64,000 bases of DNA from Planctomycetaceae bacterium (GTDB lineage Bacteria > Planctomycetota > Planctomycetia > Pirellulales > Pirellulaceae): assembly GCA_027487485.1 (NCBI GenBank), contig JAIYDN010000112.1:1-64000 (forward strand). Direction: 5' to 3'. Shown piece by piece: positions 707 to 33,988 of the stretch. The stretch's first letter is position 1, and each line of letters begins with the position of its first letter. A program made the position numbers and the translations under genes. Under the pieces are notes generated by a model that was given only the letters and a program-made list of their open reading frames with translations, was not told the DNA's origin and made no database searches.

Positions 707-711
707 AAGCG

Positions 712-3943: not shown

Positions 3944-3973
3944 AGACTCTCCGACTCGCGTATTATGGAGTCT
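3944..3973 (-). promoter_or_regulatory. Possible rpmG promoter with flanking dyad
   Basis: On the minus strand a CATAAT hexamer (3962-3967) resembles a -10 box and lies about 55 nt before the rpmG start. It is flanked by the inverted repeat AGACTC (3944-3949) / GAGTCT (3968-3973). No good -35 was found at 16-18 nt, so this is a weak call. Confidence 0.3.
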
Positions 3974-4331: not shown

Positions 4332-7300
4332 ATGACAGATATGCAACGCCAAAATTCGATGAAGACTTCTGCAAGGAAATGGTTTGCGGCTCTTTTGAAA
4401 AGCGCTTTGCCTTCGGTAGAGAATCGAAAGTGTCGCCCTATCCACTTCGAGCCGCTTGAATCGCGTCAATTGATGGCTGCAGATTTCTACGACGCAGCAT
4501 CGATGGCGGCCGCATCGGCTGGTTCGGGCACGAGTATGCCTTCGCAATTCAGCAGCGCCCCAATGAATTCCAGCGGCTTAGTCGGAGAAGGGGAAGACGC
4601 GGCGCCGAACCTGGTTGAATTTGCTAGAGCTTTGCAGCAAGCTGGCGTTCGCTTTTTTGGAGCTGATTGGTGTCCCGTTTGCACCGAGCAGAAGAAGCTC
4701 TTTGATGACGGTGCTCAGTTCCTGCCATTTCTAGAAATGACGAATCCCGACCGAACTCGAAATGCAACTGCCATTGCCGAGGGGATTACTCAATACCCAA
4801 CTTGGGAATTTGGCAGTGGAAACCGAGTTACAGGGCTGCTAACGCTGCAAGAGATTTCGACTCGGTCTGGAGTCGCAATCCCAACAGGAACCAACCCAAC
4901 CTTCACTGCGATTCCAAACGTGACTGTGCTTAATGGTTCGCCCTTGCATGTCCCAGTCGACGCCTACGATCCGAACGGCGGAGCTATCGCAATTACCGTC
5001 ACGAGCAGCAACCCATCTGTTATCTCTGCGGAAATGGTCACCAACAACAAAGCTTGGCGTATCAGCGTCAACGGCTACGGCGATATGGTGTACCGTCTTT
5101 TTGCGGATGAGGCACCACGTCCCGTAAACCGAATCGAAACCCTAACCAACAGCGGCTTCTACAACGAAGCTGGCACCAACAAAATCATTTTTCACCGCGT
5201 GATCGATAACTTCGTGTTGCAGGCTGGCGATCCAACTGGAACAGGAAGTGGCGGATCGACGCTGGGCAATTTCGATGACCAATTCGATCTTGATTTGCAG
5301 CACAACCGTACTGGCATATTGTCTTACGCTAAGTCGAGCGACGATACGAACGACTCCCAGTTCTTCATTACCGAAGGGCCCCAGCGACACCTGGACTTCA
5401 ACCATTCGATCTTTGGCCAGCTGATTGAAGGGGATGCTGTTCGAGAAGGCATATCAAGAACTCCTGTCAATAACTCCTCGCAGAACAAGCCCGTCAACGA
5501 AGTATCGATCAAGTCCGCTCAGATCTTCAACGACACCGAAAACGGGCTGATCCGATTGAAGGCTTTGGCGAATTCGGGCACATCTACCATTACGGTTCAG
5601 GTGGAAGACGCAGCGGGCAATCGCTTCTCACGGACATTTGTGGCTACCGCAGCAGCCGATACCGCCGACGGAGCACCGTTCCTGAACGACATTACGGTTC
5701 CCGCCATCTCGCCCGGCCAAACAGTAAACATTCAGCTATCCTCACAGGATGCGGAAGGCCAAGCCGTTTTTTATGAGGCTGCACGGCGAGGATCGGCGGA
5801 CTACCAATTCAATGTCAATAGCTCGACGGGCCTTCTCAGCGTAACCGCTCCGACCAACTTTACAGGGTCGTTCGATGTTGCCGTCAGCGTGCGCGCAGTG
5901 GACCAAAATTCACCGACCACTGGCGACAAATTCGACACGGAAGTTCTAACGTTCAATGTTGCTGCGGGGCTTACGGCCCCTACTTCCATCGATTTGTTAG
6001 CAGCAACCGATAGCGGAACCAGCGATTCCGACAACATTACGAACTCTGCCTCGATGCAGTTTGTCATTTCCGGCACAACCCCGGGTGCGACCGTCAACTT
6101 ACGTGTTGGCGATCAAGTTGTTGGAACTGCCGTCGCAACAGGCTCGACAACGACCATCACGACCAACTTGGTCTCCCAACTTGGCAATGGCGTGCGAAGT
6201 ATCGTTGCGACGCAAACCCAGAACGGTGTAACAACTTCAGCCTCGCCAGCTCTATCGGTTACTTATGACTCAGTCGTGCCCGCTGCAATTGCCTCAACTG
6301 CTTTGCCGACGAGCGCGAACGTGAACACCCTATTGAGCTTTGACGTGAACAGTCCAGAAGAGGGGCAGGGACTGCGGTATTCGATTGAAAACGCGCCTTC
6401 CGGATGGACCATCAATCAAAGTACAGGTCTGATGACTTGGACCCCGACTAGCGGCCAGCTTGGTCCACAATCTGCCTTGCTTCGGTTGACGGATACGGCA
6501 GGCAACTCCACGACCCAAGCGGTGGGGGTAACGGTATCCGATGCAGCAAAAGTTCGCGTAAGTTTGCAAGCCTTTGACTCGACCAATACAACGGCGCTCA
6601 CCTCGCTGTCGATCGGTCAAGAATTTGTATTGCGAGTAGTCGTGAATGATCTTCGAGTGGGCGGGAACCCTGAGGGTGACGGCGTATTCTCGGCATACCT
6701 GGATATGCTCTTTGATTCGACCAAGATTGAATTGGTCGGTTCAACGCCAGTGACTTACGATTCACTTTTTGGCAATGGCCGAAGTACACCCAACCTATCC
6801 ACCCCCGGATTGATCGATGAATTCGGAGCGTTTTCCAGCTTCAATCTGGGCCCAGGCCGCGCCACTCAGACGGTTGCCACCGTACGCATGCGGGCGACAG
6901 CGTCAGGCCAAGCTTCCTTTAGCACGAACCCCGCAGAGCTTCCCAGCCGAGGATTTTCCATATTCAAAGAAGATGGACAAATCCCCGATGGTCGAGTTGC
7001 ATTCGGGACTTTAAACCTAGCGATTGGTCAAAACTTTGTCGCGAACCCGGACCTCTTCAATTTCGATGAAGATTCTACCAACAATTCACTCGCTGTTCTC
7101 GACAATGATACCATCGTTACGGGTTCGGGGGCTGTCTTGTCGATTCAATCGGTTTCGGCAGGATCTCGTGGGGGAACCATCACGATATCATCCGACAATC
7201 GACGTGTGATCTACACGCCGGCTGCGAACGTGAACGGTCAAGAGACCTTCACCTACACAGTTCGCGATCAAACCAATGCAACCGCAACTGCGACCGTGAC

Positions 7301-9086
7301 GGTACAGCTACGTGCAGTGAACGACAACCCTGTAGCGGTGAACGATTCGCTCGGAACTGTCCGTAACACAGACCGAGACGTATTCATTCCCGTTCTGACG
7401 AACGACACTCAGGGCGCCGACTCGGGCGAGACCCTTACCGTCACACAAGTTGGAACCCCAAGCCAAGGTGGAACAGTGCGTGTCGGCAGCGCAGGCTCAG
7501 GCGTTGTCTACACTCCACGATCCAACTTCACCGGAAATGAAACGTTTACGTACACCATCAGCGACGGAAACGGTGGCACATCCACCGCAACAGTTACTGT
7601 CACTGTATCACCCGCTGTTCCACCACCAACAGTCGTAGGGGAATCATTCGCAGTCACCGAAGACGCAGCGGCGGCTGATTTTGATGTATTGGCCAATGAT
7701 ACTCCTGCCGAAACCGGCAACACTCTTACCATTACAGAAGTTAGGGCACCTAACGGCACGGCCAGTGTCGTTAATGGAAAGGTGAACTACGCTCCTCGGG
7801 CTAATTTCAATGGCCCTGAGCAAGTGGTGTATACCGTGCGAAGCAGTAACGGCGGACTCGCCAGCGGCACCGTGACATTCAACGTGTCAGCGGTCAACGA
7901 CGTACCTGATGCGGTCAATGATTCGCTCAGCACACTTTCGTCGCCGGGCCAATCGCTCAACGTTTTGGCCAACGATCCTAACGTCGATTCCGGCGAAACC
8001 TATACCATCACTGCAGTGACACAGCCAGCGACCGGGCAAGGGACCGTGCAAATCGGCCCGAACGGACGCACTCTTTTGTATTCTGCTCCCAACACCGATT
8101 TTAAAGGGACGGTGACCTTCAGCTACACCATTAGCGATGGGGGAACAGCAACCGATACCGCAACGGTCACCTTGAATGTACAGAACTTTACGCCACGTAA
8201 TGTTGGCATTACCATTCCCGAAGGCCTGCGAGGTTTGCCGATTTCCGTCGAAGTGATCAATGGAGCAACGGGAAGCGAACCACTTACCTTGTTGAATTCC
8301 TTCGATGGCTTCGCGCTCAATGACGTCGGCCCTGGAGACTATAAATTCACTTTGCCAGATCTGCCCTTTGTTTCTGGCGAAACGAGATCGGTCGTCGTCA
8401 GTTCCGCTCCAACGGCAACCAGCTCTGTTTCAACCCCGCTCAGCTCCGGCCGAATTGAAGCTCGATTCATCGACCTGCGAGACTTTATGGGAAGTAACTT
8501 AAGAAGAGGTCTTACGGCAGCAGTACGACCTAATGCTGAAACAGTTTGGAACAATGGTGTTGGGGATTGGCGTACCTACAAGGATGTCAAAGTATCGCTC
8601 AACTCGGCGGGCAACCAATTGACCGTCAAAGCTACGAATCCTTCCAATCAGGCTGTTCAAGCAGTCTTGCCTGTAACCGATCCACGCGTTGAAGTCCGCG
8701 GCAAAGAAGGAGACGCTTCCTTGTTCCGAATCAAAGCGCATCCTACCGATTTGACGTTCACACCGGCTCCGGCCGTTAGCACATCGTCGACAAAAACCTC
8801 GTCGTCATCTTCCTCGAATAATGGACTGAGCGGTGAAGGAGAAGGCAGATCGACTGCACCAGTCATCACTTCTAATACCAACTCGAAAACGGTTGCATTA
8901 GATCCAGCAGCCGTGGATCAAGTTATTCAGCAAGTCAAAGCACCGGACCGCGCTCTTGCCTCCAACAGCACGGGAGACAGCACGAAAAAAGTGCTAACTC
9001 AGACAGAACAAGCTTCCACGAAAACTTCGCAAACTAGCTCCAATCCGATTTCCAACGGATTCAGAAGAGGGTTTCGAACGCGGTAG
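4332..9086 (+). CDS. Giant LEPR-type surface protein: thioredoxin-like, cyclophilin, cohesin-like and four cadherin-like repeats
   Basis: A predicted extracellular protein of 1584 aa. The N-terminus holds FEPLESRQLMAAD (residues ~39-51), a variant of the planctomycete LEPR-XLL motif. A thioredoxin-like domain follows (nt ~4608-4880) with a WCPVC active site, resembling the one fused to VKOR. Next is a cyclophilin-type prolyl isomerase (nt ~5055-5530): FHRVI, FVLQAGD, SQFFI and the late histidine are kept, while the tryptophan of human cyclophilin A is leucine. Ig-like segments lead to a cohesin-like domain (nt ~6550-7025, with YLDMLFDSTKIELV and TPGLIDEFGAF). Four tandem cadherin-like/Big_9 repeats with DND/ANDT motifs follow (nt ~7040-8190), and a serine-rich tail. 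The ATG at 4332 has AGGA six bases upstream and is preferred; ATG 4299 and GTG 4131 are in frame. The domain mix suggests a surface scaffold with folding functions, which is inference. Confidence 0.85.
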   Translation: MTDMQRQNSMKTSARKWFAALLKSALPSVENRKCRPIHFEPLESRQLMAADFYDAASMAAASAGSGTSMPSQFSSAPMNSSGLVGEGEDAAPNLVEFARALQQAGVRFFGADWCPVCTEQKKLFDDGAQFLPFLEMTNPDRTRNATAIAEGITQYPTWEFGSGNRVTGLLTLQEISTRSGVAIPTGTNPTFTAIPNVTVLNGSPLHVPVDAYDPNGGAIAITVTSSNPSVISAEMVTNNKAWRISVNGYGDMVYRLFADEAPRPVNRIETLTNSGFYNEAGTNKIIFHRVIDNFVLQAGDPTGTGSGGSTLGNFDDQFDLDLQHNRTGILSYAKSSDDTNDSQFFITEGPQRHLDFNHSIFGQLIEGDAVREGISRTPVNNSSQNKPVNEVSIKSAQIFNDTENGLIRLKALANSGTSTITVQVEDAAGNRFSRTFVATAAADTADGAPFLNDITVPAISPGQTVNIQLSSQDAEGQAVFYEAARRGSADYQFNVNSSTGLLSVTAPTNFTGSFDVAVSVRAVDQNSPTTGDKFDTEVLTFNVAAGLTAPTSIDLLAATDSGTSDSDNITNSASMQFVISGTTPGATVNLRVGDQVVGTAVATGSTTTITTNLVSQLGNGVRSIVATQTQNGVTTSASPALSVTYDSVVPAAIASTALPTSANVNTLLSFDVNSPEEGQGLRYSIENAPSGWTINQSTGLMTWTPTSGQLGPQSALLRLTDTAGNSTTQAVGVTVSDAAKVRVSLQAFDSTNTTALTSLSIGQEFVLRVVVNDLRVGGNPEGDGVFSAYLDMLFDSTKIELVGSTPVTYDSLFGNGRSTPNLSTPGLIDEFGAFSSFNLGPGRATQTVATVRMRATASGQASFSTNPAELPSRGFSIFKEDGQIPDGRVAFGTLNLAIGQNFVANPDLFNFDEDSTNNSLAVLDNDTIVTGSGAVLSIQSVSAGSRGGTITISSDNRRVIYTPAANVNGQETFTYTVRDQTNATATATVTVQLRAVNDNPVAVNDSLGTVRNTDRDVFIPVLTNDTQGADSGETLTVTQVGTPSQGGTVRVGSAGSGVVYTPRSNFTGNETFTYTISDGNGGTSTATVTVTVSPAVPPPTVVGESFAVTEDAAAADFDVLANDTPAETGNTLTITEVRAPNGTASVVNGKVNYAPRANFNGPEQVVYTVRSSNGGLASGTVTFNVSAVNDVPDAVNDSLSTLSSPGQSLNVLANDPNVDSGETYTITAVTQPATGQGTVQIGPNGRTLLYSAPNTDFKGTVTFSYTISDGGTATDTATVTLNVQNFTPRNVGITIPEGLRGLPISVEVINGATGSEPLTLLNSFDGFALNDVGPGDYKFTLPDLPFVSGETRSVVVSSAPTATSSVSTPLSSGRIEARFIDLRDFMGSNLRRGLTAAVRPNAETVWNNGVGDWRTYKDVKVSLNSAGNQLTVKATNPSNQAVQAVLPVTDPRVEVRGKEGDASLFRIKAHPTDLTFTPAPAVSTSSTKTSSSSSSNNGLSGEGEGRSTAPVITSNTNSKTVALDPAAVDQVIQQVKAPDRALASNSTGDSTKKVLTQTEQASTKTSQTSSNPISNGFRRGFRTR

Positions 9087-9113
9087 CAATTTCGACTTAG
9101 TAAGCAAAGCGTG

Positions 9114-9135
9114 AAACCGCTTTTCTAAGCGGTTT
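9114..9135. terminator. Bidirectional terminator hairpin
   Basis: A perfect 9-bp stem AAACCGCTT / AAGCGGTTT with a TTCT loop lies between the convergent stops of the giant surface gene (9086) and the AsmA-like gene (9134); it overlaps the latter's stop codon. The flanking A and T runs fit an intrinsic terminator on either strand. Confidence 0.65.
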
Positions 9136-12100
9136 ACTCGCGTGATGCATTTTCTGGTAGCACCTTGTCGAGAGTGTTCATGAAGAGTCGATGATGACGA
9201 ATCTGTGGGTCGTTGGTGGTACCATCGACCTCGATTTGCCATAACTTCGCACCGCTCGCGTTGGAAATGGGTCGGAATATCCCGCCGCGTCGGCCAACAT
9301 TAGCAAACATATCGAGGTGAACCTCGCGTCGCATGTTCACCCACCCCGTGCCGCGCATCGAGACAATATCTCCATCCAACGTCAGCTCTTGAATAGGGAA
9401 CTGATCTCCATCGATTGCGAATTGGACATCCGCAGAATCGAACGCTGCTTGACTGGGGCTTACGGACAAAATCTGGAACAACCGAATCATGGCCGGAAGT
9501 TCATACAGGTTGGCTCGACGCAACCAAGCCTGCCCTTGCCCCTCTAGGGATGAAGTGTTGGTCAGCGCTCCGTTAACGTCGCACTGAATCGAAAGCCTAC
9601 CCGACGTGCTGGTATTGGTCTCACCCAGGTCCACCAGGAACCCGTGCAGGTCGGCATCCACCAAACGGAATCGGTACCTAGCCCTTTCCCCAAGCCCAAG
9701 CGGTTCGGTTCCGCTTAAGAAGATGGTACCGCTTAACGAGCGCGCTCGAATATCGGTGTCTTTGATATCCAGGATGGGCACTTCGGGATTTGCAGAAACA
9801 GCATTGGGATTTTCCGGAGGGATTGGTTCCGATCGATTCAGGATGCCCGGTCTATTGGCAAGCGAGTCGCGGAACTCGCTTCGAAACGACGCTTGCGAAA
9901 CAGCATTCGAGTCCTGGTTCTGACCGAGATAGTCCGCAGCAACCACATCACTGCCTGGAATGCTTTGACGTAGGCTCGGGACCTGTAAGTTTTGTTTTTG
10001 CTGCCATTGGATGGCATCCCGACCAAACATTAATTGTTCGCGGTTGAATGCAAATGGTCCTCGCACCCCTGTCACTGCAACATTCTTGATGGCAAGCGCA
10101 TCGAGATCTAACATGCCATATGCCATAGGGCCAGCCGGGGTGCTCTTGCCCAAAAGAGACAGGGACCCACGAATGCCAGAAGCAATGCCACCTCCACCCA
10201 GTCTGCCATCTTCGATTTGCAATTCCAGATCCCATTCTCGAACGATCGAGACATCGCCCATCAATTCATCTGGATTTGTTGCGCTCGCAATCATTTGCGG
10301 TTGGTACGGAGTCGTGGGGGAAGAAACTCTTGTGTTGCCGGTGATACTGACTGGCCCACGAAAATCCATGCGAACCAACGGGTCGCGTAGATAGCTTGGC
10401 AAACAATTCAACAAGCTTTGATCTACCACGAGACGGGTGGACGGCAGCCAATAGAGCATCCCATCCCATGTGCCATCGGAGTGCAGGCGACACATGCCTT
10501 CGGTTTTCATTCGGCTGGAGTCATGCATTCCCGAAAGCGATTTGATGTCAATCTTTCCGGGCCGACACAAAATCTTGCAGGCGATATCATTGATCTGATA
10601 AGGAAGGGATATGGGGCGAACGGATACGGACCTTCCTGATCTTGTTTCCGACTCGCTCTTTTCGACCACTTCAACTCGATAGTCGATGGCCGGGCTCGTG
10701 CTCTTTCGAGTAATCTCCACGTTCACTTGATCGAGCACGCCGCTTGGCTGCAGTTGGTCCCACAATCCTCGAACGCTTTTTGGAAGTGCCAACTGGAGCT
10801 CTTCATCAAGCCCAACATCGAAGCCATCAAAGAATAGCTCAAGAGACTCTAGGGCGGCATTTTTCGTTTGGCATAACCCATACCCTTTGATTCGAGCGCC
10901 GTCATTTCGCCCGACAAAATCTCGAAGAAGAATACGTTCGTTGTCGATAGTCACTTCACCGTGGACATCTACAATAGGGTAGCGAAAGTTATCATACTTG
11001 ATGGAGCATTCTGAAAACGTTAGCTCGATCGCTTTGGAAATGGTGTCGGGTCGGTCGGCGGTCCGCGTAAAGCGACCTTGTTTCAACAGTACGGTTCCCG
11101 AGGGATGGAGCGAGGTAACAAATTGATTCACACCACTAGGTGTGGTCCCGCGAGGTGAAAGGGCTTTCAACAAGGCTTCGTCAATCGCTATGGGACCGTC
11201 CGCAGCCAAACGCAAATCCATAAGCCAACGCGGCTTGGCTTGCGTTAGCGTAAGCCCGCCGCGAATCGTTTGTTCCCCCGCCTGACCGACAAGATCATTG
11301 GCCGTGATGACGCCGTTCTCGTAAACAAACTCGCCATTGACGTTCTTGACCGGATAGGGAAAGAATTCAGGTTCCAAACCCGCATTCAATGCTTGAACCG
11401 TTACTCTTGGCTTCCATTGTGCACCATCAAACTGAAGGGTAGCTTGCGCATTGACCTTGCCGGCAACACCCATCTTGCGCCATGTTTCCTGGATGGAAAC
11501 GGGAAGCGCTTGATACAAACGCTCGTCAAGAGCCAAACCTTGAACCGCAAAACTGGCTTCCAGCGGCGCTGGAAAAGAATAACCGTGCACATGGCCAGCA
11601 AACGCAAGACTGGTGTCGCGACTGAATGCCTTGAAGTGGTTGAGATAAACGCTCCCTTTCTTGAAGTGAACTTCACCCGAAATGGATTCAAGCGGGTACG
11701 GAACTTTGGGATGCAACAACCGTCCCTGAGAAATGGTCGATTTGGCTTCAAAATCAAGAGTTCCTTGATTCGAAACAGCGGCAAACGATGTATTGAATTG
11801 ACCGCTAAAGCCCTCCACTTGGCTCAGATGCTTTTGAAACACCTTCGGAAGCTGCTCTGCCAAGCGTTGCGAATACTCGAACTTGGCAATCTGACCTTGA
11901 AGAGTCCAGTTGGTTTTGTCTTCATTGATTGTCGCCACCAAGTTTACGCTTCGAAAAAAGCTACTAGAGACACTTGACGTTACTTTGACAGCAAGCGGCA
12001 TCACTCTGCCTGCGATCATGCGAGGTAGAAGATTGGCCTGAACTCGTAAATCGTGGCAAATGATCTCTTGCCCTGTTTGTGCTGATTCATTGCCGATTCG

Positions 12101-23670: not shown

Positions 23671-24867
23671 TTATCGGCGAAGCCACCGCTCCAGGCCTGC
23701 GGGAATTTCTACTCCGTTTTCCCGAAGCAGATCAATGATTTGACGAGCAGTCAGTGGTTTGCCAGCTTCGGTTGCCAAAGTCATCGCCTTGGTCACAATC
23801 TCGATGGTAGCTGCAGGTACCTGAAATCGATTCAAGATCATAGTCACCAAACCAATCGGTGGTGTGATCTCGGTTCGTGGGGGGGGCGAGACGGGTGGAC
23901 GAACAACGGGAAACAGCTTGCTGACGTCAACGCCAAGCTCTGTCAATCTAGACTTGATTTGATCGAGCGATAGTGGATTGCCCGCTTCAATACTTGCCTT
24001 CAGTTCAACAACAATCGTTGACACAATTTGCTCTGTGACACCCGCATCACGCAGCCGCTTTGCAAATGCTTCCAATCGACCTCGGTGTTCATGCTCAACC
24101 GAATCACGTGGATCTTGGTCACGAGGTGGCGGGAAAATCTTGGATACATCAACGCCAAGTTCCGTTAGCCTTGACTTGATCTGCTCCAAAGTAAGCGGTT
24201 GCTTCGCATCGAATCCAGCCTTGATCTCGCTGGAAATGGTCGTGATAACCGAAACTGTGACGCCAGCTTCTGTTAACCGTTTTGCGAAACCCTCAATACG
24301 CTCTGCAATGGCCTTATCACGATGATCTTCATCAACTCGATCGGCTACCAAAACGGCCGATCGTTCATTCTCTACCCGTTGCACTTCGGATCGCTCAAGA
24401 ATCCGTCCTTCCATAAGTCGTTCACCGACTTCCGGGCGGCCCCCCGCTTTCAGCGTATCAAGAATCTCTTGAGCTTCCATCAATCCCATGTTGGGTGGAA
24501 GAGTGAAGTTAGCTAGGGCAGCTTCGATTCGAGCTATGCGATTCTCCGTCCGCACGCCGCTCGGCATAGACGTAGCGTCAGGCGATTTCGCGTTCAAATA
24601 ATTGATCACCACGAGAGCATCGAGCGGAGAAGTTCGACCGTCCGCATCCACGTCGATGAACCGGGTCGCTTCAGCCTTACCTGAATTCGGCTGGTTTAGT
24701 GAATTGATGACCATCAATGCATCGAGAGGCGACACACTACCGCTATTGTCGCAATCCTCTGGCATGATGAAATTGTGGAGCTCCATGAGATCACCTGCCA
24801 TCATGGCTCGTGGCTCTAAAGCTTCATACCGCAGCCAACGACGTGGGGAATCGCTCGATTTCTTCAT
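23671..24867 (-). CDS. LEPR-type secreted protein with dockerin pair and tandem helical repeats
   Basis: 398 aa. It starts with a short basic segment and YEALEPRAMMAGD, the planctomycete LEPR-type motif, then a dockerin pair (loops CDNSGSVSPLDA and DVDADGRTSPLDA, each followed by a VINSLN/VINYLN helix). The C-terminal two thirds hold two clear copies and one diverged copy of a ~75-residue helical unit. Each has a pattern FAKRL..AGV....I..I..E.KA and ends in IKSRLTELGVDVSK.FP. Here the dockerin lies at the N-terminal end, opposite to the usual order. The longest frame begins at TTG 24957; ATG 24867 is chosen because GGAG sits six bases upstream and the LEPR motif follows at normal distance. 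Its function is unknown; an extracellular protein-binding role is inferred. Confidence 0.75.
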   Translation of the reverse strand: MKKSSDSPRRWLRYEALEPRAMMAGDLMELHNFIMPEDCDNSGSVSPLDALMVINSLNQPNSGKAEATRFIDVDADGRTSPLDALVVINYLNAKSPDATSMPSGVRTENRIARIEAALANFTLPPNMGLMEAQEILDTLKAGGRPEVGERLMEGRILERSEVQRVENERSAVLVADRVDEDHRDKAIAERIEGFAKRLTEAGVTVSVITTISSEIKAGFDAKQPLTLEQIKSRLTELGVDVSKIFPPPRDQDPRDSVEHEHRGRLEAFAKRLRDAGVTEQIVSTIVVELKASIEAGNPLSLDQIKSRLTELGVDVSKLFPVVRPPVSPPPRTEITPPIGLVTMILNRFQVPAATIEIVTKAMTLATEAGKPLTARQIIDLLRENGVEIPAGLERWLRR

Positions 24868-25117
24868 CTCAAACTCCAAACAAGAATGAACCATTTCCGA
24901 AACTTGCTTTCGTTCCGAAATCGCAACACATCCAAAAAGACACCAGAATCCTATCAAATGTGTTTTGGCAATGCCACAAAAGTTGGCCAGATTTCTTAGA
25001 ATTTTAGAGTCCTTCAGAAGTCTCAGCCTCCAAAAAACACCGTCGCGGAAAATCGCCGCGCCCTGCTCAGCTTTGTTTCAAGCCATTTTGGATATGGCAA
25101 ACGAACAATAAAAACGG

Positions 25118-25261: not shown

Positions 25262-25939
25262 GTGTTTGAACTGATTCAGCCACTTCTTGCTTCACCTGTT
25301 CTGCCGGCAACCATCTTGCTTCTGTTGGTCGTTTCATGGAGTCTGTTCACGATCGCTATAGGATACGGTATTGATCTGCAAGGGGATCTTCCTTTCCACA
25401 TTCCCAACCCCTTCCACGGGCTATTTCATGGACTGGATGACGCTGTCGGTGCCGTCGTTCTGGCCCCAACGAAGTGGCTTAACCTAAGAAGCGTTCCATT
25501 CATGCTGTGGCTTGGCGTTTTTGCAATTGCATGGTGGAGTATCTCGTTGATCTGGTGGTTGTCCCTAGACGATTGGTTCACTCCGAATCCAAGCTCCGTC
25601 GTGACTCTAGGCTTGATTCTTCGCAATATCGTTTGCACCCTGCCATTGGTGAAACTTGCCACACAACCGATGCAAGGATGGTTTAGCAATACGAACCAGC
25701 TTCATTCCAAATCGTTGATCGGACAAGAGGCAGAAATTTCCTCGTACGATGCAACGCCTGACAACGGGCAAGCCAAATACAAAACCGGCGCGGCCCCCTT
25801 ATTGTTGAACGTTCGAACTGATGGTCCGCATCTGCCTAAGGGCACCCGAGTGTGGATCACTCATTACGACGCCCAAAAACACATCTACCTTGTTTCTCCT
25901 ACCACTACTGATTCCAATTCCACGAGCACACACAGTTAA
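25262..25939 (+). CDS. YqiJ-like OB-fold membrane protein (DUF1449 type)
   Basis: 225 aa. The N-terminal part has about three transmembrane stretches (SPVLPATILLLLVVSWSLFT; FMLWLGVFAIAWWSISLIWW; a shorter one near residues 115-130). The C-terminal ~75 residues (GQEAEISSYDA, AKYKTGAAPLLLNVRT, GTRVWITHYD) look like the OB-fold of NfeD/YqiJ proteins. In other bacteria these are encoded next to flotillins and are thought to work with them in membrane domains. The start is GTG 25262; no better in-frame start is seen. The flotillin gene begins four bases after this stop, so translation is probably coupled. Confidence 0.75.
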   Translation: MFELIQPLLASPVLPATILLLLVVSWSLFTIAIGYGIDLQGDLPFHIPNPFHGLFHGLDDAVGAVVLAPTKWLNLRSVPFMLWLGVFAIAWWSISLIWWLSLDDWFTPNPSSVVTLGLILRNIVCTLPLVKLATQPMQGWFSNTNQLHSKSLIGQEAEISSYDATPDNGQAKYKTGAAPLLLNVRTDGPHLPKGTRVWITHYDAQKHIYLVSPTTTDSNSTSTHS

Positions 25940-25943
25940 TCCT

Positions 25944-27962
25944 ATGGACATCATTTTGTTTGCAGCAACAATCCCTCAATGGGCCGTCGGTGCTTTGATC
26001 TTGATCGGCTCGCTGATCCTGGTCGGCACGGCCTTTATCATCATTGCAAGTAAGTTCTACATCAAAGTAGGCCCTGACGAAGCGATCGTAAAAACAGGGA
26101 TGGGAGGAATGTCGGTCATTATCGATGGCGGAGCACTCATCTGGCCAGTGGTACATCGTTACGAAAAGATGGACCTTACTTTGAAGAGTTTTGAAATCGC
26201 TCGCGAGGGCTCCGAAGGATTGATCTGCAAAGATAACATCCGAGCCGACATCAAGACGGCTTTTTTCATTCGAGTCGACAAAACCAACGAAGAAATCAAA
26301 GAGGTCGCGCAATCCATTGGCTGCAAACGAGCTAGCCAAGTGGAAACCCTTCGCGAACTCTTCGACGCTAAGTTCTCCGAAGCCCTCAAGACCGTCGGCA
26401 AGCAATTTGAATTTGTCGAACTCTACGACAAACGGGACAAGTTCAAGAACGAGATTCTGAAGGTCATTGGTACCGATCTCAACGGCTACCGGCTTGATGA
26501 CTGCGCTATCGACTACTTGGAACAAACACGACTGGAACTGCTCAATCCCAACAACATCCTCGACGCCGAGGGGATTAAGAAAATCACAGAACTGACGTCG
26601 AACGAGAAAATCAAAGAGAACCATTTCACTCGCGAACGTGAGAAAACGCTAAAAAAGCAGGACGTCGAAGCCCAGGAAGCAATCTTGGAATTGGAACGTC
26701 AACGTATTGAAGCTACCGAACGGCAAAAGAGAGAAGTTGCCGAAATCCAGGCTCGCGAAAATGCTTCCGCCGCCAAGGTCCAAGAAGAGAACCGCCTGTC
26801 TTCCGAACGAGCCAAGATCGCAGTCGATGAAGAGATTGGCATCGCAACTCAGAATAAAGAACGAACAATCCTGGTTGCTCTACGCAACAAAGAACGTACC
26901 GACGCAGTCGAACTGGAACGTATCCTTCGCGACAAAACGCTTGAAGCAACGGAACGCGAACGGGTTGTTGGACTGGCAATCGTCGAAAAGGAAAAAGCAC
27001 TCGAAACCGAAAAGCGAAACATCCAAGAAGTGATTCGCGAACGAGTCATTGTCGAACGCGCGGTGGTGGAAGAGCAGCAAAAGATCAAGGACACAGAAGC
27101 CTTTGCGACTGCTGACCGGACCAAGAAGGTAGAGATCACGGCGGCGGAAGCGCTTGCCGAACAATCTCTTGTTCGCGAGATCAAGGCCGCGGAAGCTGGA
27201 CGCAAGGCTGCCGAGAGCACCGCGGCCAAAATCCGAATCGAAGCCGAAGCTCACCGCGATCAAGCCGAACAGCGTGCAGCGGCTTCCAAGCTAACCGCCG
27301 AAGCAGCGACGGCTGAACACGCCGCCCAAGGACTGGCCGAAGCACAAGTGCAACAAGCCAAAGCAGTCGCGACCCAAGATCAAGGGCTGGCGGAAGCTCG
27401 CGTGCTTCGCGAAAAATACACCGCAGAAGCCCAAGGCATCAGCGAAAAAGCTACGGCCATGAAAGAACTCGACGGAGTCGGTCGCGATCACGAAGAGTTC
27501 AAACTACGGCTCGAAAAGGACAAGCAAATCGAAATCGCCGCGATCACAGCGCAGTCGTCGATCGCCGAAAATCAATCCTTTGTGATCGGTGAAGCACTGA
27601 AGTCCGCCAAGATCGACATTGTCGGTGGCGATGGTCAATTCTTCGACCAAATTTCCTCAGCCATCCAAGGGGGCAAGGCAATCGATCGATTTGTTCTGAG
27701 CTCCAAAGTAGCGACAGACATCAAAGAGACATTCTTCAACGGAAGCCCGGATCACTTTCGCGAACAGCTGGGCGCGCTCCTAGGACAACTCCATCTGAAT
27801 TCAGGAGACATCAAAGACCTGAGTGTTGCAGCCTTGATTGCGAAATTGCTTGCGGGTGACTCAGCTGCCGGTATCCAATCTCAGCTGGTCAACTTGCTCG
27901 GCATGGCGGGCTCACTTGGCCTTGCCACCCAACCGGTCGCAACCTTTTTGCCCAAAAAATAG
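25944..27962 (+). CDS. Flotillin-like SPFH protein (YqiK type)
   Basis: 672 aa. An N-terminal membrane helix (residues ~12-35) is followed by an SPFH/Band-7 domain (FYIKVGPDEAIVKTG, IDGGALIWPVVHRYEKMDL, LICKDNIRADIKTAFFIRVD). A long Glu/Ala/Arg-rich coiled coil (~residues 220-530) follows, and a globular C-terminal end. This is the flotillin layout: proteins anchored in the membrane that oligomerise and organise membrane domains. The longest frame starts at 25821 inside the preceding gene; ATG 25944, just after that gene's stop, is chosen because the helix and SPFH domain follow directly. It is immediately followed by the giant AAA ATPase gene (15-nt gap). An antisense frame of 239 codons over its first third is a shadow. 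Confidence 0.9.
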   Translation: MDIILFAATIPQWAVGALILIGSLILVGTAFIIIASKFYIKVGPDEAIVKTGMGGMSVIIDGGALIWPVVHRYEKMDLTLKSFEIAREGSEGLICKDNIRADIKTAFFIRVDKTNEEIKEVAQSIGCKRASQVETLRELFDAKFSEALKTVGKQFEFVELYDKRDKFKNEILKVIGTDLNGYRLDDCAIDYLEQTRLELLNPNNILDAEGIKKITELTSNEKIKENHFTREREKTLKKQDVEAQEAILELERQRIEATERQKREVAEIQARENASAAKVQEENRLSSERAKIAVDEEIGIATQNKERTILVALRNKERTDAVELERILRDKTLEATERERVVGLAIVEKEKALETEKRNIQEVIRERVIVERAVVEEQQKIKDTEAFATADRTKKVEITAAEALAEQSLVREIKAAEAGRKAAESTAAKIRIEAEAHRDQAEQRAAASKLTAEAATAEHAAQGLAEAQVQQAKAVATQDQGLAEARVLREKYTAEAQGISEKATAMKELDGVGRDHEEFKLRLEKDKQIEIAAITAQSSIAENQSFVIGEALKSAKIDIVGGDGQFFDQISSAIQGGKAIDRFVLSSKVATDIKETFFNGSPDHFREQLGALLGQLHLNSGDIKDLSVAALIAKLLAGDSAAGIQSQLVNLLGMAGSLGLATQPVATFLPKK

Positions 27963-27977
27963 TTAGTCTCCATTACC

Positions 27978-30900
27978 ATGACCGATACTGCCCTCGCATC
28001 TGGCACGTACGAAGTTCTTCGTAATCGGCTTCGCGAAGCGTCTGCCGATCTTCGGAAACGCTTCTCAAGCCTGAACGAAGCACGCGCTGCTGTCTTCGGA
28101 AATCTAGAGACTCGGCTCCTGACAACGACGCATGTCACCACGGAACACAACTGTATCCCACGTGATATCTTCGCGTCCGAAGGGATCGTGCTGCTTGGCT
28201 ACAACGTGCAGTTTGGTCTCAAAACTGAGATCGAACCGGGCGATGTTCTTTCGGTGTATCGATTTGACGGTGAAAACGCCAAGCAGGAATCCCTAGAAAC
28301 AATTGCGGACTCTTCGTTCCGGCGCGACTTTCAAGAACTCTATCGCTACTATCGCAATGCAACGTTCACACGATTCTTTCGCAGCGGCGCCAATCTTTAC
28401 GCCATCTTTCAGATCGGCAAAGCGAGCGCTGGCATCAAGGCTTTCAAGTGGGCCATCGATGGCAATCAACTTCGTTACGTCGATAATCGAAGCGAGTCGG
28501 AGATCCGTCCGCCTGCCCAACATGCATTTCAATGGAAACGAGCCACTCGCGATCACCATCGCCACGGTAAACACCCCCATATTTCCATCGAAGATCGAGT
28601 CTTCGTGGAGTGCATTCAGGGTGACTTGACCATCAAGGTCGAGGACAATACCGAAGACGGACTCGGCATTTATCGCGAACCTGTAGACAGCCCTGATCAG
28701 ACGCTCGACGATGCCGAAACCTACTATGCCATTCTTGGTAATCTGATTCTCTTTAAGATCCGCCCCTATCAAGAACGGGACTTTCGATATCTTGTTTTCA
28801 GCACGAAACGCCTGTCGGTCGAGCGATTAGATTCGCTTGGACTCGCATGCGCTTTACTTCCGGACGACCATGGAATTATCTTCCCAAATGGATTCGTTCT
28901 GCAAACCGGTGCCTCCAAATTGTTTGATCATGGACTAAACAATTTGGCTTTCGATCGAATCATCAAGTCGCCTAACGGTGAAGATTTTCTATTCCTTTTT
29001 GCGAATATCGAAACCGGCGTCTATCTGCAACTCCGATACAACCTGATCCGCCAAGAGGTCGACACGCCCCTGGTGTGTCATGGTCAAGCCTTTTTCGAAA
29101 ATGGCACCATGCTTAGCATGCGAGCTAGTGATGCACCACAAAAACACCATGCACTGCAAGTATGGCAAACTCCCTTCACGGGCAGCAACTTTCGCCCAAG
29201 CGTTCAATCGGACTCTTTGCTGTTCAAAATTGGAAATCAAGATCTTGTACGCGGCATGGCAGAATGCCAAGAGATCCTTTCTCTCATCGACAAAGATGAA
29301 TCTTATGAAGATCTCTATGCCGATCTCGCGAAACGGGCTACGAATGTTCTTGACGCCTATTTTTGGCTAGAGCGCGAAGAAGCTTGTACTCTGGCAGAAC
29401 CGTTGCGGAAAATTCGCGAAGCTGCAACGGCTGCCGTAGACGAGTTTGAAAAGGTCATTCGTGTCCGCAACGAAACGAAAAAGGCGACGGACCAAGCCGA
29501 ATCCGATGCAATTGGAATCCTCAAGGCTAGCGAGCGATCACGCTTTGAAAAGGTCGAGGATTTCGTAAAGCAACTGGCGTCCATTCGAAGCCAGCGAGGA
29601 ATCATCATTCAGCTGCGTGAACTCCGATACTGCGATCTCGATCGCATCAACCTACTGGAATCGCAACTGGCGGAGGCAGCAGATCGGCTGGGCGTCCGGT
29701 GTGTGCAATTTTTGCTTGCGCCCGAATCGCTCAAGGGATATTCCCTTGAAATCGAAGCTCTTGCCAATCAAGTCCCCAGCTCCAACTCGACCGCTACCGC
29801 CAAGAAAATCGAAGAGCAGTTTGCGAACATCGCCGGCTCGCTTGAGCTGCTTATCGAAACGGTATCGCAGTTGAAGATCGAGGATCTTGCCCAACGAACC
29901 GCCATCGTGGATCGAGTCGGCGACGCACTCGCTCAATTGAACCGGTCTCGATCAGGTCTTAAGACCCGAATGCGAGAATTGACGACAGGGGAGCTCGAAT
30001 CCGACTTCGCCTCTCAGTCCAAGTTACTCGACCAAGCTGCCGCAAGCGCCATCGATTCCTCGGAGACACCCGAACGCGTTGACAACGCTCTGCTGAGAAT
30101 TCTCTTGCAAGTCGAAGAACTGGAAGGTCGATATGCAGACTCCGAGACACTCCTTCTTCGCTTAACCGAAAAACGCCAATCGCTTTGTGACCTATTTGAA
30201 TCCAAGCGACAGCAACTGGTAGAACAACAAACTCGACAAGCCAATTCACTGGTTGCCGCCGCCGATCGTATCTTGGCAGGTATCCAATCTCGAGCTTCGC
30301 GAATCGAGTCTCCACCGGAGCTCTTGGCGTATTTTGCTTCGGATTTGATGGTCGACAAGCTCCGGAAGATCGCGAACCAATTGTTGGACCTGGGGGATTC
30401 TGTCCGACGCGACGATGTCTTGTCAAGATTGAAGGCAATCTCCGACGATTCGATGCGTCAGCAGCGCGATCGACGCGAACTTCAGTCGGACGGCAACCGT
30501 TCGATACGCTTTGGTCAACATACTTTCAGTATCAATCAACAGCCGATCGAACTGACGACCGTAATTCGAAACGGGGTGATTCATGTACACCTTACCGGTA
30601 CCCAGTACTTCCAGCCGCTCGTCGACGAATCGCTTGATTCGGCTCGAGATCTTTGGGACCAAGCGTTGCCAAGCGAATCGCCGGAAGTATACCGGGCGGA
30701 ATTCCTAGCCTACATGCTTGTTACGGAACAGAACCACAAGAAAGAGCATCCGAACTTTCAAGATTCGTTTTTGTCCAAGTCGTCTGAACAGCAAGTGGCC
30801 TGGGTTCGTGAACAAATGCAAGCTCGCTACGAAGAGGGCTACGTTCGCGGCGTGCATGATGTCGATGCAGCAAAAATCCTTGCATCGCTGGTCCATTTGC

Positions 30901-33212
30901 AAAAATCTTTGGGACCGTTCATTCATTCGCCAAAAACGCGTAGCCTTGCGTGGTTCGTTTGGTTCCAAATGGTACCGAGCGCAGAACGTGAATCGGTTTC
31001 CCAGTGGGTTCAGTCAATCGCCACCGTCGATCGGTTGTTGCCCAATTCCGAACCCAGCCAGGCTTGCCTCCGGGCTATTTCCAAGTTGCTTCGCCTGCAC
31101 TCGGACGGGATGTTGCAAAGCGTTTCTCGATCGGAAGCCGCACGGTATCTTTTCGATTGGATTCGAAGTGAACACGGAACCGCCAAGGACAAAAAGATTC
31201 TCGAACCGAATCGATTCACTCCTTCGCAACGCGCGCAAGAACTGCTCGCAATGTTGCATCAGCATATGCTTGCGGACCAGTTGCATTCTCTCCAAAACGC
31301 GGTTCATGCACATGCGAAAAACCCTAAGGAAGCGTGGCATGTTGCGGCAAAGGCAGTAGACGCATTTTTTGAAAGTTTATTGGCAAAAGGCCCCGAAACT
31401 TCCAAAGCCGATCCCTTGGTGGATTACCGGGAAGAAATGACTTTGTTGTTGATGAACCATGAAAAATCGCACCCCCCTATCCATTCCGGCAGCCCTATCC
31501 ATTCCGGCCGGGCCGTCCCTTCCAAAGCCACGGCAACTCTTGTCGACATGGTGGGGGACCATCCAAGAATCACAGCAGGCGTCCTAGAGCTTCACTACCA
31601 TCACTTTGGTTCGCGATTGCGCAAATATGTTCGCGATGTGGTTCCAAGATGGCGTGCGCTGCAAGAGACCAAACATCGACTCCTTCAACAAGCCGACCGT
31701 CGCATCAAGTCTCAGGAGTTCAAGGCACGCGTTCTTACAAGCTTTGTTCGCAACCAATTGATCGACGAAGTCTACCTGCCTCGCGTCGGTGACAATTTGG
31801 CGAAACAGATGGGGACCGTGGGTGAAAATCGACGCACCGATCGTATGGGGTTGCTATTGCTCATTAGCCCCCCAGGCTATGGCAAAACCACATTGATGGA
31901 ATATGTTGCCAATCGATTGGGGCTGGTCTTTGTCAAAGTGAATGGGCCGGCATTGGGGCACGCGGTATCCTCGCTAGACCCCAGCGAAGCAACCAATGCA
32001 GCCGCTCGGGAAGAAGTGCATCGCATCAATATGGCCCTTGAAATGGGTGACAATGTGATGCTCTATTTGGACGACATCCAACATTGCAACGTCGAGTTGC
32101 TTCAGAAATTCATTCCGCTTTGCGATGCAACACGTCGAATCGAAGGTGTCTGGGACGGAGCATCTAAAACCTACGATCTGCGAGGACGAAAGTTTGCCGT
32201 CGTGATGGCTGGAAACCCTTACACAGAAACGGGACAGCGGTTCCAGATCCCCGACATGCTGGCCAATCGAGCTGATGTTTACAACATTGGGGAGATCATC
32301 GGCGACAGTCGCGTTGCCTTCGAGGAATCGTATTTGGAAAATTGCCTCACCAGCAACGTCACACTGCAACCGTTAGCTCGATGCTCCAATGCGGACCAGC
32401 AAGCGTTGATCGCTGCAGCCCGAAAAGGCACTCAGGATTCCATCGAACTGGAAAGCAACCTGTCGCGTGATAGCGTGCAAGAAATGCTGACGGTTCTGGC
32501 GAAACTGCAACGCGTCCGGAACGTCGTACTGACGATGAACCAAGCCTACATTCACAGTGCAGCACAATCCGATGAGTATCGGACGGAGCCTCCCTTTAAA
32601 TTGCAGGGTAGCTACCGAAACATGAACCGCATCGCCGAAAAAGTTTTTCCTGTCATGAACGACCAGGAACTGGAACGGCTGATTCTGTCTAGCTACCAGC
32701 AGGATTCGCAAACGCTCTCCCGCGATAGTGAATCCAACATGCTCAAATTCAAAGAGCTGATCGGAAGACTGGATGATACCGAACAGGCCCGTTGGAACTC
32801 CATCAAGAAAACATTTGTAGAGAAAAACCGCCTCAAGGGACTCTCAGGCGACGATTCCACCGCCCAATTCCTCAGCTCACTTCTGGGTATCTCTGTCGGT
32901 TTGGATTCGATTCGAGGAGCCTTGGAGCAAGCGGTGGCCAAGCAATCGGATCAAACCAAAAAGCAAGATCTGGATCCTCGCGTGATCGTACAACATGCAG
33001 TCCCTCGGGTGATGACGGAATTAATTCGCAGCCAGTTTCAATTGCTTTACGATGGACTAAGGCCCGTGCTGGAAAGCGTGGCCTTACAATCATCGAATGC
33101 TGATCGATTGCGGGCTGCCATTCAAGATCTGTTGCAACGGTATCAATCCATGGAAACCGCAGCCAGCAAAGCACCGGAAGCGACTCCTGAAGAAGACGAA
33201 CTCGAACGATAG
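27978..33212 (+). CDS. Giant DUF3686 / AAA ATPase
   Basis: 1744 aa. The N-terminal ~450 residues match DUF3686: TYEVLRNRL, LNEARAAVFGNLETRLL, THVTTEHNCIPRD and LLGYNVQFGL. A long charged, partly coiled-coil region follows (~470-860). An AAA-type ATPase domain has Walker A PPGYGKTT at ~1296-1303, Walker B VMLYLDDIQH at ~1360-1369 and the sensor-1 region VMAGNPYTETG at ~1410. The C-terminal ~300 residues are helical. Such proteins are often annotated as DNA repair ATPases, but nothing here points to DNA; the fixed neighbours are membrane proteins. It is the third gene of the cassette, 15 nt after the flotillin gene, with the CorA-like gene 38 nt downstream. A perfect 16-nt duplication at 31475-31508 gives the repeat PIHSGS-PIHSGR in a linker. 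Confidence 0.8.
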   Translation: MTDTALASGTYEVLRNRLREASADLRKRFSSLNEARAAVFGNLETRLLTTTHVTTEHNCIPRDIFASEGIVLLGYNVQFGLKTEIEPGDVLSVYRFDGENAKQESLETIADSSFRRDFQELYRYYRNATFTRFFRSGANLYAIFQIGKASAGIKAFKWAIDGNQLRYVDNRSESEIRPPAQHAFQWKRATRDHHRHGKHPHISIEDRVFVECIQGDLTIKVEDNTEDGLGIYREPVDSPDQTLDDAETYYAILGNLILFKIRPYQERDFRYLVFSTKRLSVERLDSLGLACALLPDDHGIIFPNGFVLQTGASKLFDHGLNNLAFDRIIKSPNGEDFLFLFANIETGVYLQLRYNLIRQEVDTPLVCHGQAFFENGTMLSMRASDAPQKHHALQVWQTPFTGSNFRPSVQSDSLLFKIGNQDLVRGMAECQEILSLIDKDESYEDLYADLAKRATNVLDAYFWLEREEACTLAEPLRKIREAATAAVDEFEKVIRVRNETKKATDQAESDAIGILKASERSRFEKVEDFVKQLASIRSQRGIIIQLRELRYCDLDRINLLESQLAEAADRLGVRCVQFLLAPESLKGYSLEIEALANQVPSSNSTATAKKIEEQFANIAGSLELLIETVSQLKIEDLAQRTAIVDRVGDALAQLNRSRSGLKTRMRELTTGELESDFASQSKLLDQAAASAIDSSETPERVDNALLRILLQVEELEGRYADSETLLLRLTEKRQSLCDLFESKRQQLVEQQTRQANSLVAAADRILAGIQSRASRIESPPELLAYFASDLMVDKLRKIANQLLDLGDSVRRDDVLSRLKAISDDSMRQQRDRRELQSDGNRSIRFGQHTFSINQQPIELTTVIRNGVIHVHLTGTQYFQPLVDESLDSARDLWDQALPSESPEVYRAEFLAYMLVTEQNHKKEHPNFQDSFLSKSSEQQVAWVREQMQARYEEGYVRGVHDVDAAKILASLVHLQKSLGPFIHSPKTRSLAWFVWFQMVPSAERESVSQWVQSIATVDRLLPNSEPSQACLRAISKLLRLHSDGMLQSVSRSEAARYLFDWIRSEHGTAKDKKILEPNRFTPSQRAQELLAMLHQHMLADQLHSLQNAVHAHAKNPKEAWHVAAKAVDAFFESLLAKGPETSKADPLVDYREEMTLLLMNHEKSHPPIHSGSPIHSGRAVPSKATATLVDMVGDHPRITAGVLELHYHHFGSRLRKYVRDVVPRWRALQETKHRLLQQADRRIKSQEFKARVLTSFVRNQLIDEVYLPRVGDNLAKQMGTVGENRRTDRMGLLLLISPPGYGKTTLMEYVANRLGLVFVKVNGPALGHAVSSLDPSEATNAAAREEVHRINMALEMGDNVMLYLDDIQHCNVELLQKFIPLCDATRRIEGVWDGASKTYDLRGRKFAVVMAGNPYTETGQRFQIPDMLANRADVYNIGEIIGDSRVAFEESYLENCLTSNVTLQPLARCSNADQQALIAAARKGTQDSIELESNLSRDSVQEMLTVLAKLQRVRNVVLTMNQAYIHSAAQSDEYRTEPPFKLQGSYRNMNRIAEKVFPVMNDQELERLILSSYQQDSQTLSRDSESNMLKFKELIGRLDDTEQARWNSIKKTFVEKNRLKGLSGDDSTAQFLSSLLGISVGLDSIRGALEQAVAKQSDQTKKQDLDPRVIVQHAVPRVMTELIRSQFQLLYDGLRPVLESVALQSSNADRLRAAIQDLLQRYQSMETAASKAPEATPEEDELER

Positions 33213-33250
33213 CCCAGCTCCAAATACAACTTGAGGGAAGAACCAAACAG

Positions 33251-33988
33251 ATGCCATCAACACCACTGATTCCGTCCAACTGGGCCTCGTTTCCAGACGA
33301 GTTCCGTAACCGACTCGGATCCACGGTCGGACGCCAGCGAATCATGCAATCCGAACAGGACCTACTGGTCGTTGCTCATCAAGTGCCAGAGCATGACGAA
33401 CTAGGACGCCGCGGAGTCCTGTTCTGGCGGGATGCTTCGGGCGAATGGCGATGTAGCAATGGGGATCCGGGAAAGGCAGCGCTGGGTTTGCATCTGGACC
33501 GATACGCGAAAAAGTTGGATACGTTCGAAAATGCCGTATCCAAAGCAATGCGAGCAGACGACTACCTGGCTTTGCTAGAAGGGCTGGCTCCCATCGTCAG
33601 ATCCAACCGCAATTTGTTTGAAACGCTGGAAGAAGCTCGGAAGGCTGTCCCATCCGACCGTTCCCTGATCGATCACCGAGACAAGGCATACGATCTTTCA
33701 CGACAAGCAGATCTGCTTTACGAGGATTCCAAAAACTCGATGGATGTGGCGATGGTCCGAAGAGCGGACGAGCAGGCTCAAGCATCGCACAAAATGATGG
33801 TCGCCGCGCATCGATTGAATACGCTAGCTGCCCTGTTCTTCCCGTTTGCGACACTAGGAGCCATCTTCGGGACAACCCTCACCGACAACTGGAACTGGTC
33901 CAAGTCGGCAGTTCCCTTTTTCATCTTTGTGATTGTCAGTGGGCTCACGGGCTTGGCACTTACTAAATTCGTTACCAAGCCCACTTGA
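33251..33988 (+). CDS. CorA-like two-helix membrane protein without GMN motif
   Basis: 245 aa. A soluble N-terminal domain (~180 residues) ends in a long helical region (EEARKAVPSDRSLIDHRDKA onward). Two C-terminal transmembrane helices follow (LNTLAALFFPFATLGAIFG and AVPFFIFVIVSGLTGLALT) with a short loop. This shape, and the LNTLAALFFP start of helix 1, recall the CorA magnesium channel family. The selectivity motif GMN that should follow helix 1 reads GTT (FGTTLTDN), so ordinary Mg2+ transport is doubtful. GAGG precedes the ATG at a good distance. It is the last gene of the flotillin/ATPase cassette; a channel or membrane sensor role in that system is inference. Confidence 0.65.
   Translation: MPSTPLIPSNWASFPDEFRNRLGSTVGRQRIMQSEQDLLVVAHQVPEHDELGRRGVLFWRDASGEWRCSNGDPGKAALGLHLDRYAKKLDTFENAVSKAMRADDYLALLEGLAPIVRSNRNLFETLEEARKAVPSDRSLIDHRDKAYDLSRQADLLYEDSKNSMDVAMVRRADEQAQASHKMMVAAHRLNTLAALFFPFATLGAIFGTTLTDNWNWSKSAVPFFIFVIVSGLTGLALTKFVTKPT

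What the first reader, a model, noticed from the sequence alone, without database searches (positions are those of the whole stretch)
25262..33988. Compact cassette: YqiJ-like protein, flotillin, giant DUF3686/AAA ATPase and CorA-like membrane protein
Four plus-strand genes lie with gaps of 4, 15 and 38 nt, which argues for one transcript. YqiJ/flotillin pairs are known; a 1744-residue AAA ATPase and a two-helix CorA-like protein in the same run suggest a membrane-remodelling or stress machine in which the flotillin scaffold recruits an ATPase. The usual 'DNA repair ATPase' label for DUF3686 proteins has no support from this context.
Basis: partly seen in the sequence, partly recalled or inferred. 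Interest (0 to 1): 0.75.

Follow-up and report, generated by a model that had tools for sequence, protein, structure and literature searches.

The report
Flotillin gene cluster with giant ATPase

Summary
The four ORFs, their coordinates and the gaps of 4, 15 and 38 nt are real. YqiJ-flotillin-DUF3686 is a conserved unit: a flotillin lies just upstream on the same strand in 75 of 78 planctomycete loci and 64 of 67 named loci from many phyla, counting two overlapping ORFs. In the five loci without this arrangement that are not simply divergent, the close flotillin is kept elsewhere, and all 47 DUF3686 genomes in a 392-genome sample carry it. The core matches operons already in print (Ravi et al. 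2024, PMC11237479, passages read: PspA/CesT + YqiJ + flotillin + 'novel AAA+ ATPase', and shortened forms). The 'DNA repair' label rests on similarity of the ATPase core alone. The fourth protein has a CorA-type membrane end but adjoins DUF3686 in 4 of 68 loci, lies over 1.6 Mb away in the 12 single-contig genomes of the two samples that have both, and shows no association within the family (p=0.50). Most likely: an envelope-stress module, a flotillin/NfeD-like scaffold served by an AAA+ remodelling motor, often with PspA. The mechanism is inferred; no structure could be predicted.

The parts
25262..25939 (+). YqiJ/YuaF-like (NfeD-type) membrane protein, 225 aa; three hydrophobic stretches, C-terminal part like the YuaF domain; core gene 1
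   Evidence: NfeD E=0.018, below cut-off; YqiJ_N in 5 of 17 relatives; YuaF 2K14 E=0.0074; same-strand upstream neighbour in 73 of 78 planctomycete loci
25944..27962 (+). Flotillin-like SPFH protein, 672 aa, strong N-terminal hydrophobic stretch (17-35) and a weak one at 626-644; core gene 2
   Evidence: adjacent to DUF3686 in 75 of 78 loci
27978..33212 (+). DUF3686-DUF7902-AAA+ ATPase, 1744 aa; Walker A 1297-1305, Walker B 1360-1369 (Asp-Asp), sensor-1 Asn 1413, candidate arginine finger R1431 (names of motifs assigned by me); core gene 3
33251..33988 (+). 245-aa protein with a CorA-type two-helix C-terminus; local neighbour, not part of the conserved core
   Evidence: adjacency in 4 of 68 loci

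Best explanation
A three-gene envelope-stress module. The YqiJ (NfeD-like) protein and the flotillin assemble at the inner membrane as a scaffold that holds stressed membrane regions or unfolded clients. The DUF3686 protein is a cytoplasmic AAA+ ATPase dedicated to this flotillin type; it is recruited to the scaffold and uses ATP to remodel or release what the scaffold holds: client proteins, or oligomers of PspA, which shares the operon in a part of the loci and is encoded elsewhere in this genome. Shown here: conserved gene order, near-perfect co-occurrence with the flotillin, retention when unlinked, invariant ATPase residues. Inferred: binding, substrate and motor action. The fourth gene is a lineage-specific neighbour.
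For: Gene order: 75 of 78 planctomycete loci; 62 of 67 named loci plus two with overlapping ORFs (L235, L240) and one divergent pair (L250); 5 of 5 plasmid-collection loci read, of 12 records with a match. Co-occurrence: close flotillin in 47 of 47 DUF3686 genomes and in 2 genomes without DUF3686, both incomplete (68 and 72%), of 392. Unlinked but kept: G490, G529, and G519 (3.7 kb away, opposite strand), and the genomes of L211 and L222; G507 and G446, which are not among the 91 DUF3686 genomes, also have no such flotillin. PspA on the same strand in 21 of 80 named loci, a CesT/Tir-like cluster in 16; both confirmed by Pfam in L220. One PspA in the own genome, on another contig. P-loop, Walker B, sensor 1 and R1431 invariant in 47 of 47 rows. 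In print: an SPFH protein is needed to localise PspA to the membrane in B. subtilis (PMC8581546, Discussion read); FloA-NfeD holds unfolded proteins without ATP (PMC11222466, passages); the P. aeruginosa bac operon is co-transcribed (PMC10948618, passages), its PspA-like protein accumulates on osmotic shock (PMC2587700, passages), and PA3728-PA3732 were up in all phage-infected samples of one study (PMC12041424, passage).
Against: By my narrow profile PspA is present in only 1 of 81 planctomycete loci (L055), so it is no obligate operon member. Walker B carries Asp-Asp, not Asp-Glu, so hydrolysis is unproven. The ATPase domain scores best against RuvB among three comparison profiles. In P. aeruginosa PA14, deleting paFlo3 (the flotillin of the bac operon) or all nine SPFH genes did not affect growth, and paFlo3 loss cost only about 20% of biofilm; no oxidative-stress or Galleria virulence role was found (PMC13086221, passages). 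A pa3728 insertion mutant grew well on glucose, succinate and fumarate (PMC12599236, passages).
Confidence: 0.6

Rival explanations
1. DUF3686 is a DNA-repair or branch-migration ATPase, as its Pfam and RefSeq names say, and the flotillin merely tethers it or is an unrelated neighbour.
For: Profile comparison of the ATPase domain: RuvB set score 88.4 over 148 columns, classical AAA set 73.6 over 42, MoxR set 37.4 over 118 (all profiles of low diversity). NCBIfam's best match is RuvB, below cut-off, and RuvB is in the PDB list. Annotated plasmid records name it 'DNA repair ATPase'.
Against: Pfam at E<=1 shows no RuvB C-terminal or other DNA-binding domain (HMMER drops most matches above 0.1). 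RuvB_N is below its cut-off (23.9 against 27 bits). The best PDB matches are p97/Cdc48, and nearly all matches sit around the P-loop. The conserved context is membrane proteins, PspA and, on pQBR103, polyamine-type genes, not repair genes.
Confidence: 0.08
2. A protein quality-control device without PspA: YqiJ-flotillin holds unfolded membrane proteins and DUF3686 unfolds or refolds them.
For: FloA-NfeD stabilises unfolded proteins (PMC11222466, passages); SPFH-AAA partnerships exist (HflK/C-FtsH; seen only in a search listing with abstracts); PspA was found in 1 of 81 planctomycete loci.
Against: PspA linkage in 21 of 80 named loci and CesT/Tir-like genes in 16, and on a Hymenobacter plasmid.
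Confidence: 0.3
3. The four genes are one four-part machine in which the CorA-like protein is an ion-conducting or sensing subunit.
For: The same order is found in G401, G461 and G483. In the 20-kb stretch of G401 only one flanking ORF matches anything in the 64-kb window, at 30% identity and about 9 kb beyond the window's cassette, so the set stayed together while flanks changed. The DUF3686 tree places G483 outside the genus, so the linkage may be old in that small clade; the tree of the CorA-like protein is poorly resolved at that point. Phylum-wide co-occurrence, 20 of 31.
Against: Apart in 12 of 12 single-contig genomes with both genes (coordinates); adjacent in 4 of 41 family genomes with both; no association within the family (41 of 91 against 30 of 58, p=0.50); G446 keeps the gene but has no such flotillin.
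Confidence: 0.07

Closest known systems
CesT/Tir-PspA + flotillin + YqiJ + AAA+ operons and their abbreviated forms (Ravi et al. 2024, PMC11237479; passages read)
   Same: YqiJ/YuaF-type protein, band-7/flotillin protein, and an AAA+ ATPase with N-terminal coiled coil and propeller; shortened forms without PspA are noted there.
   Different: No PspA or CesT gene beside the window cassette. That DUF3686 is their 'novel AAA+ ATPase' is my inference from gene order; the passages do not use the name and the supplement was not seen.
Pseudomonas aeruginosa bac operon bacABCDEF (PMC10948618, PMC2587700, PMC13086221; passages read)
   Same: NfeD-like bacC, flotillin bacD, then bacE; PA3728, which I take to be bacE, is called ATPase in one table (PMC8190622); co-transcribed by RT-PCR.
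   Different: Begins with DUF2170 and PspA genes and ends with bacF. That PA3728/bacE is a DUF3686 protein was not tested by sequence here.
Bacillus subtilis PspA-YdjGHI (PMC8581546; outline and Discussion read)
   Same: An SPFH protein and membrane proteins working in a membrane-stress system.
   Different: No AAA+ ATPase of this kind is mentioned in what I read; PspA is in the operon.
HflK/C-FtsH (search listing only)
   Same: An SPFH assembly paired with an AAA+ enzyme.
   Different: FtsH is a membrane protease; Pfam shows no protease domain in DUF3686 and no membrane helix was predicted.

Membership tests
YqiJ-flotillin-AAA+ (DUF3686) envelope module | YqiJ/YuaF-type protein upstream of an SPFH/flotillin protein | tested here: met
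   Weak or below cut-off for the window's single proteins, better with family members or profiles.
YqiJ-flotillin-AAA+ (DUF3686) envelope module | Giant AAA+ ATPase directly downstream with conserved nucleotide site | tested here: met
YqiJ-flotillin-AAA+ (DUF3686) envelope module | Beta-propeller and coiled coil before the AAA+ domain | tested here: inconclusive
   A profile of residues 1-850 matches only a coiled-coil protein in the PDB at E<=1 (best 0.0013); no propeller match by sequence.
Full PspA/CesT operon | PspA and CesT/Tir genes in the same run | tested here: not met
   No such gene beside the window cassette; one PspA elsewhere. The window is filed as the abbreviated form.
CorA metal transporters | Two C-terminal helices related to CorA, with the Gly-Met-Asn motif (motif recalled) | tested here: inconclusive
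   CorA-type membrane end supported; Gly-Met-Asn in 7 of 21 rows, P0004 reads Gly-Thr-Thr there. The similarity covers only the membrane end.
RuvB / DNA repair ATPases | RuvB ATPase domain with C-terminal DNA-binding domain | tested here: not met
   RuvB_N 23.9 bits against cut-off 27; no C-terminal DNA-binding domain. Similarity limited to the ATPase core.

The most novel reading that the evidence does not exclude
DUF3686 is the dedicated motor of a widespread bacterial membrane-repair machine, working on flotillin/PspA assemblies as Vps4 works on ESCRT-III, and is tied to one whole clade of flotillins even where the genes are no longer neighbours.
Probability: 0.3. Interest if true: 0.75.

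Novelty: new member of a known kind. Interest (0 to 1): 0.42.

Why it matters
It ties a Pfam and RefSeq family with a probably misleading name (DNA repair ATPase) to one flotillin type by gene order and co-inheritance, including genomes where the genes are unlinked. That makes a direct test possible: does a flotillin scaffold have an ATP-driven partner, and does that partner act on PspA, the bacterial ESCRT-III relative?

Tried and rejected
Fourth gene as partner: the phylum-wide association looked strong (20 of 31 genomes with P0004 relatives also have DUF3686, odds ratio 22, p=2e-13), but it vanishes inside the family and is put down to shared ancestry.

MoxR-type ATPase: suggested by eye from the sensor-1 region and by AAA_5; not supported when compared with MoxR, RuvB and classical AAA sets, where RuvB scored best. 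The ATPase class is left open.

Anti-phage defence system: PADLOC gave only mad8 at E=0.0055 and Csn2 at 0.029 for DUF3686 and nothing for the other three; no match in 50,697 phage records. Induction in phage-infected P. aeruginosa fits a phage-shock-type response.

DUF3686 in print: no paper in the library holds the term, and none holds both 'DNA repair ATPase' and 'flotillin'. The published operons were found through YqiJ/flotillin and PspA terms.

Rows set aside and biases: in the flotillin count I set aside 15 of 64 genomes as not close; 14 match at 29-33% identity, and one (G312, 62% complete) is a 95-aa stretch at 64% identity that may be a close flotillin without DUF3686. That search scored only the three best candidates per genome. 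Of the 91 DUF3686 genomes of the family sample I fetched 32 beyond those already in hand, chosen by me (all listed genus members, then mostly long contigs), not at random. My PspA profile was built from two sequences at first and misses divergent forms. Two of the 'plasmid' records that I looked at or list are of chromosome size (Proteus 4.1 Mb, Nonomuraea 11.9 Mb).
Full report
What is there. Four plus-strand ORFs lie at the stated coordinates with gaps of 4, 15 and 38 nt. A divergent gene lies 304 nt upstream and a convergent gene 18 nt downstream. No plus-strand terminator-like site falls in the gaps, and the scan as a whole is at chance level.

The proteins. Gene 1 has three hydrophobic stretches and, through its family profile, matches the domain of YuaF (2K14, E=0.0074); Pfam YqiJ_N hits 5 of 17 relatives at E<=0.1. 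Gene 2 is an SPFH/flotillin protein by family (Band_7 in 2 of 17 relatives at E<=0.01), though P0002 itself passes no cut-off; the profile's one PDB match, QmcA at E=0.0023, lies in the helical region and not in the SPFH domain. Gene 3 has PF12458 at 24-462, DUF7902 at 584-667 and AAA-type hits between 1293 and 1416; Walker A, a Walker B with Asp-Asp, sensor-1 Asn and a candidate arginine finger are invariant in 47 of 47 aligned rows. It has no predicted membrane helix. Gene 4 ends in two helices related to CorA: 20 of 21 rows of its family hit CorA in Pfam at E<=1, P0004 itself not, and the profile's seven best PDB matches are CorA sequences, E about 0.003.

How constant the neighbourhood is. 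DUF3686 occurs in 47 of 392 genomes of the phylum sample and 91 of 149 of the family sample. I fetched the loci of the first set and 32 further ones of the second, giving 81 loci with a DUF3686 ORF, the window included. Of 78 with more than 2.5 kb upstream, 75 have the flotillin within 3 kb on the same strand and 73 have YqiJ as well. The three exceptions are G519, G529 and G490, all in the window's genus. Of 80 named loci from GTDB genomes (Planctomycetes, Bacteroidetes, Verrucomicrobia, Desulfobacterales, Clostridia, Myxococcus and others), 67 have room upstream: 62 have the flotillin as above and 60 have YqiJ, two more flotillins overlap by a few bases (L235, L240), one pair is divergent (L250), and two loci (L211, L222) have none.

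Broken linkage, kept partners. G490 (one contig, gene 3.7 Mb away by coordinate), G529 (another contig) and G519 (3.7 kb away, opposite strand) keep a flotillin 77-81% identical to the window's. The genomes of L211 and L222 keep one at 54 and 60% in the best segment. G507 and G446 lack it and are not among the DUF3686 genomes. In the phylum sample all 47 DUF3686 genomes carry a close flotillin, and two genomes have one without DUF3686 (68 and 72% complete; Fisher p=7e-59; not corrected for ancestry; 15 distant or fragmentary rows set aside, one of which may be close). So the ATPase appears tied to this flotillin type whether or not the genes adjoin.

The fourth gene. Relatives occur in 31 of 392 and 71 of 149 genomes. 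It adjoins DUF3686 in 4 of 68 loci with more than 1 kb downstream: the window, G401, G461 and G483. In the family sample 41 genomes have both, and by coordinates only those four have them side by side; draft contigs can hide some. In the 12 single-contig genomes with both (seven: G048, G069, G181, G238, G299, G385, G389; five: G397, G459, G469, G488, G490) they lie more than 1.6 Mb apart by coordinate. Its neighbourhoods in other lineages differ and hold no cassette (25 contexts shown, the window included). The phylum-wide association disappears in the family (41 of 91 against 30 of 58; p=0.50). In its favour: the four-gene order is shared by the window and G401 while their flanks are not (one distant match at 30% identity), and the DUF3686 tree allows an old linkage in this small clade, later lost in part.

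Wider context. PspA lies on the same strand in 21 of 80 named loci, and a CesT/Tir-like gene in 16; in L220 both were checked by Pfam (PspA 3.8e-45, CesT_Tir_1 6.3e-57). In the 81 planctomycete loci my profile finds PspA only in L055, three copies. The window's genome has one PspA on another contig. Twelve records of the plasmid collection hold DUF3686 (some are of chromosome size). In the five that I read, a flotillin of this family and a YqiJ-like ORF lie upstream in order. On pQBR103 the run is DUF2491, DUF350, DUF1190, glutathionylspermidine synthase, YqiJ-like, SPFH protein, 'DNA repair ATPase'; a Hymenobacter plasmid has Tir chaperone, PspA, DUF1449 (the YqiJ-like ORF), flotillin, 'DNA repair ATPase'. 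No phage record has it.

What is known. Ravi et al. 2024 (PMC11237479; [quoted passage not shown] I equate their ATPase with DUF3686 from gene order; the passages do not give the name. The P. aeruginosa bac operon looks like the same system with PspA: six genes, co-transcribed (PMC10948618, passages), with NfeD and flotillin at PA14_16160 and PA14_16180 (PMC13086221). Mutants of bacA or of the PspA-like gene have biofilm and rhamnolipid defects (PMC10948618, PMC2587700, passages), but the flotillin mutant loses only about 20% of biofilm and has no other strong phenotype in the passages read. PA3728 is called 'ATPase' in one table (PMC8190622), PA3728-PA3732 rise in phage-infected cells (PMC12041424), and a pa3728 mutant grew well on three carbon sources (PMC12599236). 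I did not test PA3728 by sequence.

Mechanism. An SPFH protein is needed to bring PspA to the membrane in B. subtilis (PMC8581546), and FloA-NfeD clamps unfolded proteins without ATP in S. aureus (PMC11222466, passages). The simplest reading is that DUF3686 adds an ATP-driven step to such a scaffold. Whether it acts on clients, on PspA or on the flotillin itself is open. The 'DNA repair' name fits similarity to the RuvB ATPase domain (best of three profiles), but no DNA-binding domain was found and the neighbours are membrane genes.

Limits. No structure was predicted. Gene calls are mechanical ORFs. Genome samples share ancestry. Genus and family are the tool's own groups.

Noticed in passing
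L048 (1885-12126, - strand) and L209: DUF3686 ORFs of 3413 and 3320 residues, about 1500 longer than the other full-length ones: a possible fusion; L209 is from a Gimesia MAG.
   Followed up: no
L055 3618-5093 and 13241-13957: Three PspA-like genes flank one YqiJ-flotillin-DUF3686 cassette, two upstream and one downstream.
   Followed up: partly
L065 3795-6629; L051 4347-5204: Downstream of DUF3686 lies a protein that looks like a coiled coil, weakly like PspA in L065 (Pfam E=0.011) and without such a hit in L051, followed in L065 by a second AAA protein of 622 aa.
   Followed up: partly
L212, L220, L223, L233 and others (21 loci hold the cluster): A helix-turn-helix-type gene (by eye) lies divergently upstream of the operon in 20 of the 21 loci that hold it, a candidate local regulator.
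   Followed up: no
L286 (pQBR103) 71-11205: The cassette sits behind polyamine-type genes (glutathionylspermidine synthase, DUF350, DUF1190, DUF2491), joining two operon types that the passages of Ravi et al. list apart.
   Followed up: partly
window 23671-24957, - strand: The divergent upstream gene carries a dockerin-like repeat region by eye (motif recalled).
   Followed up: no
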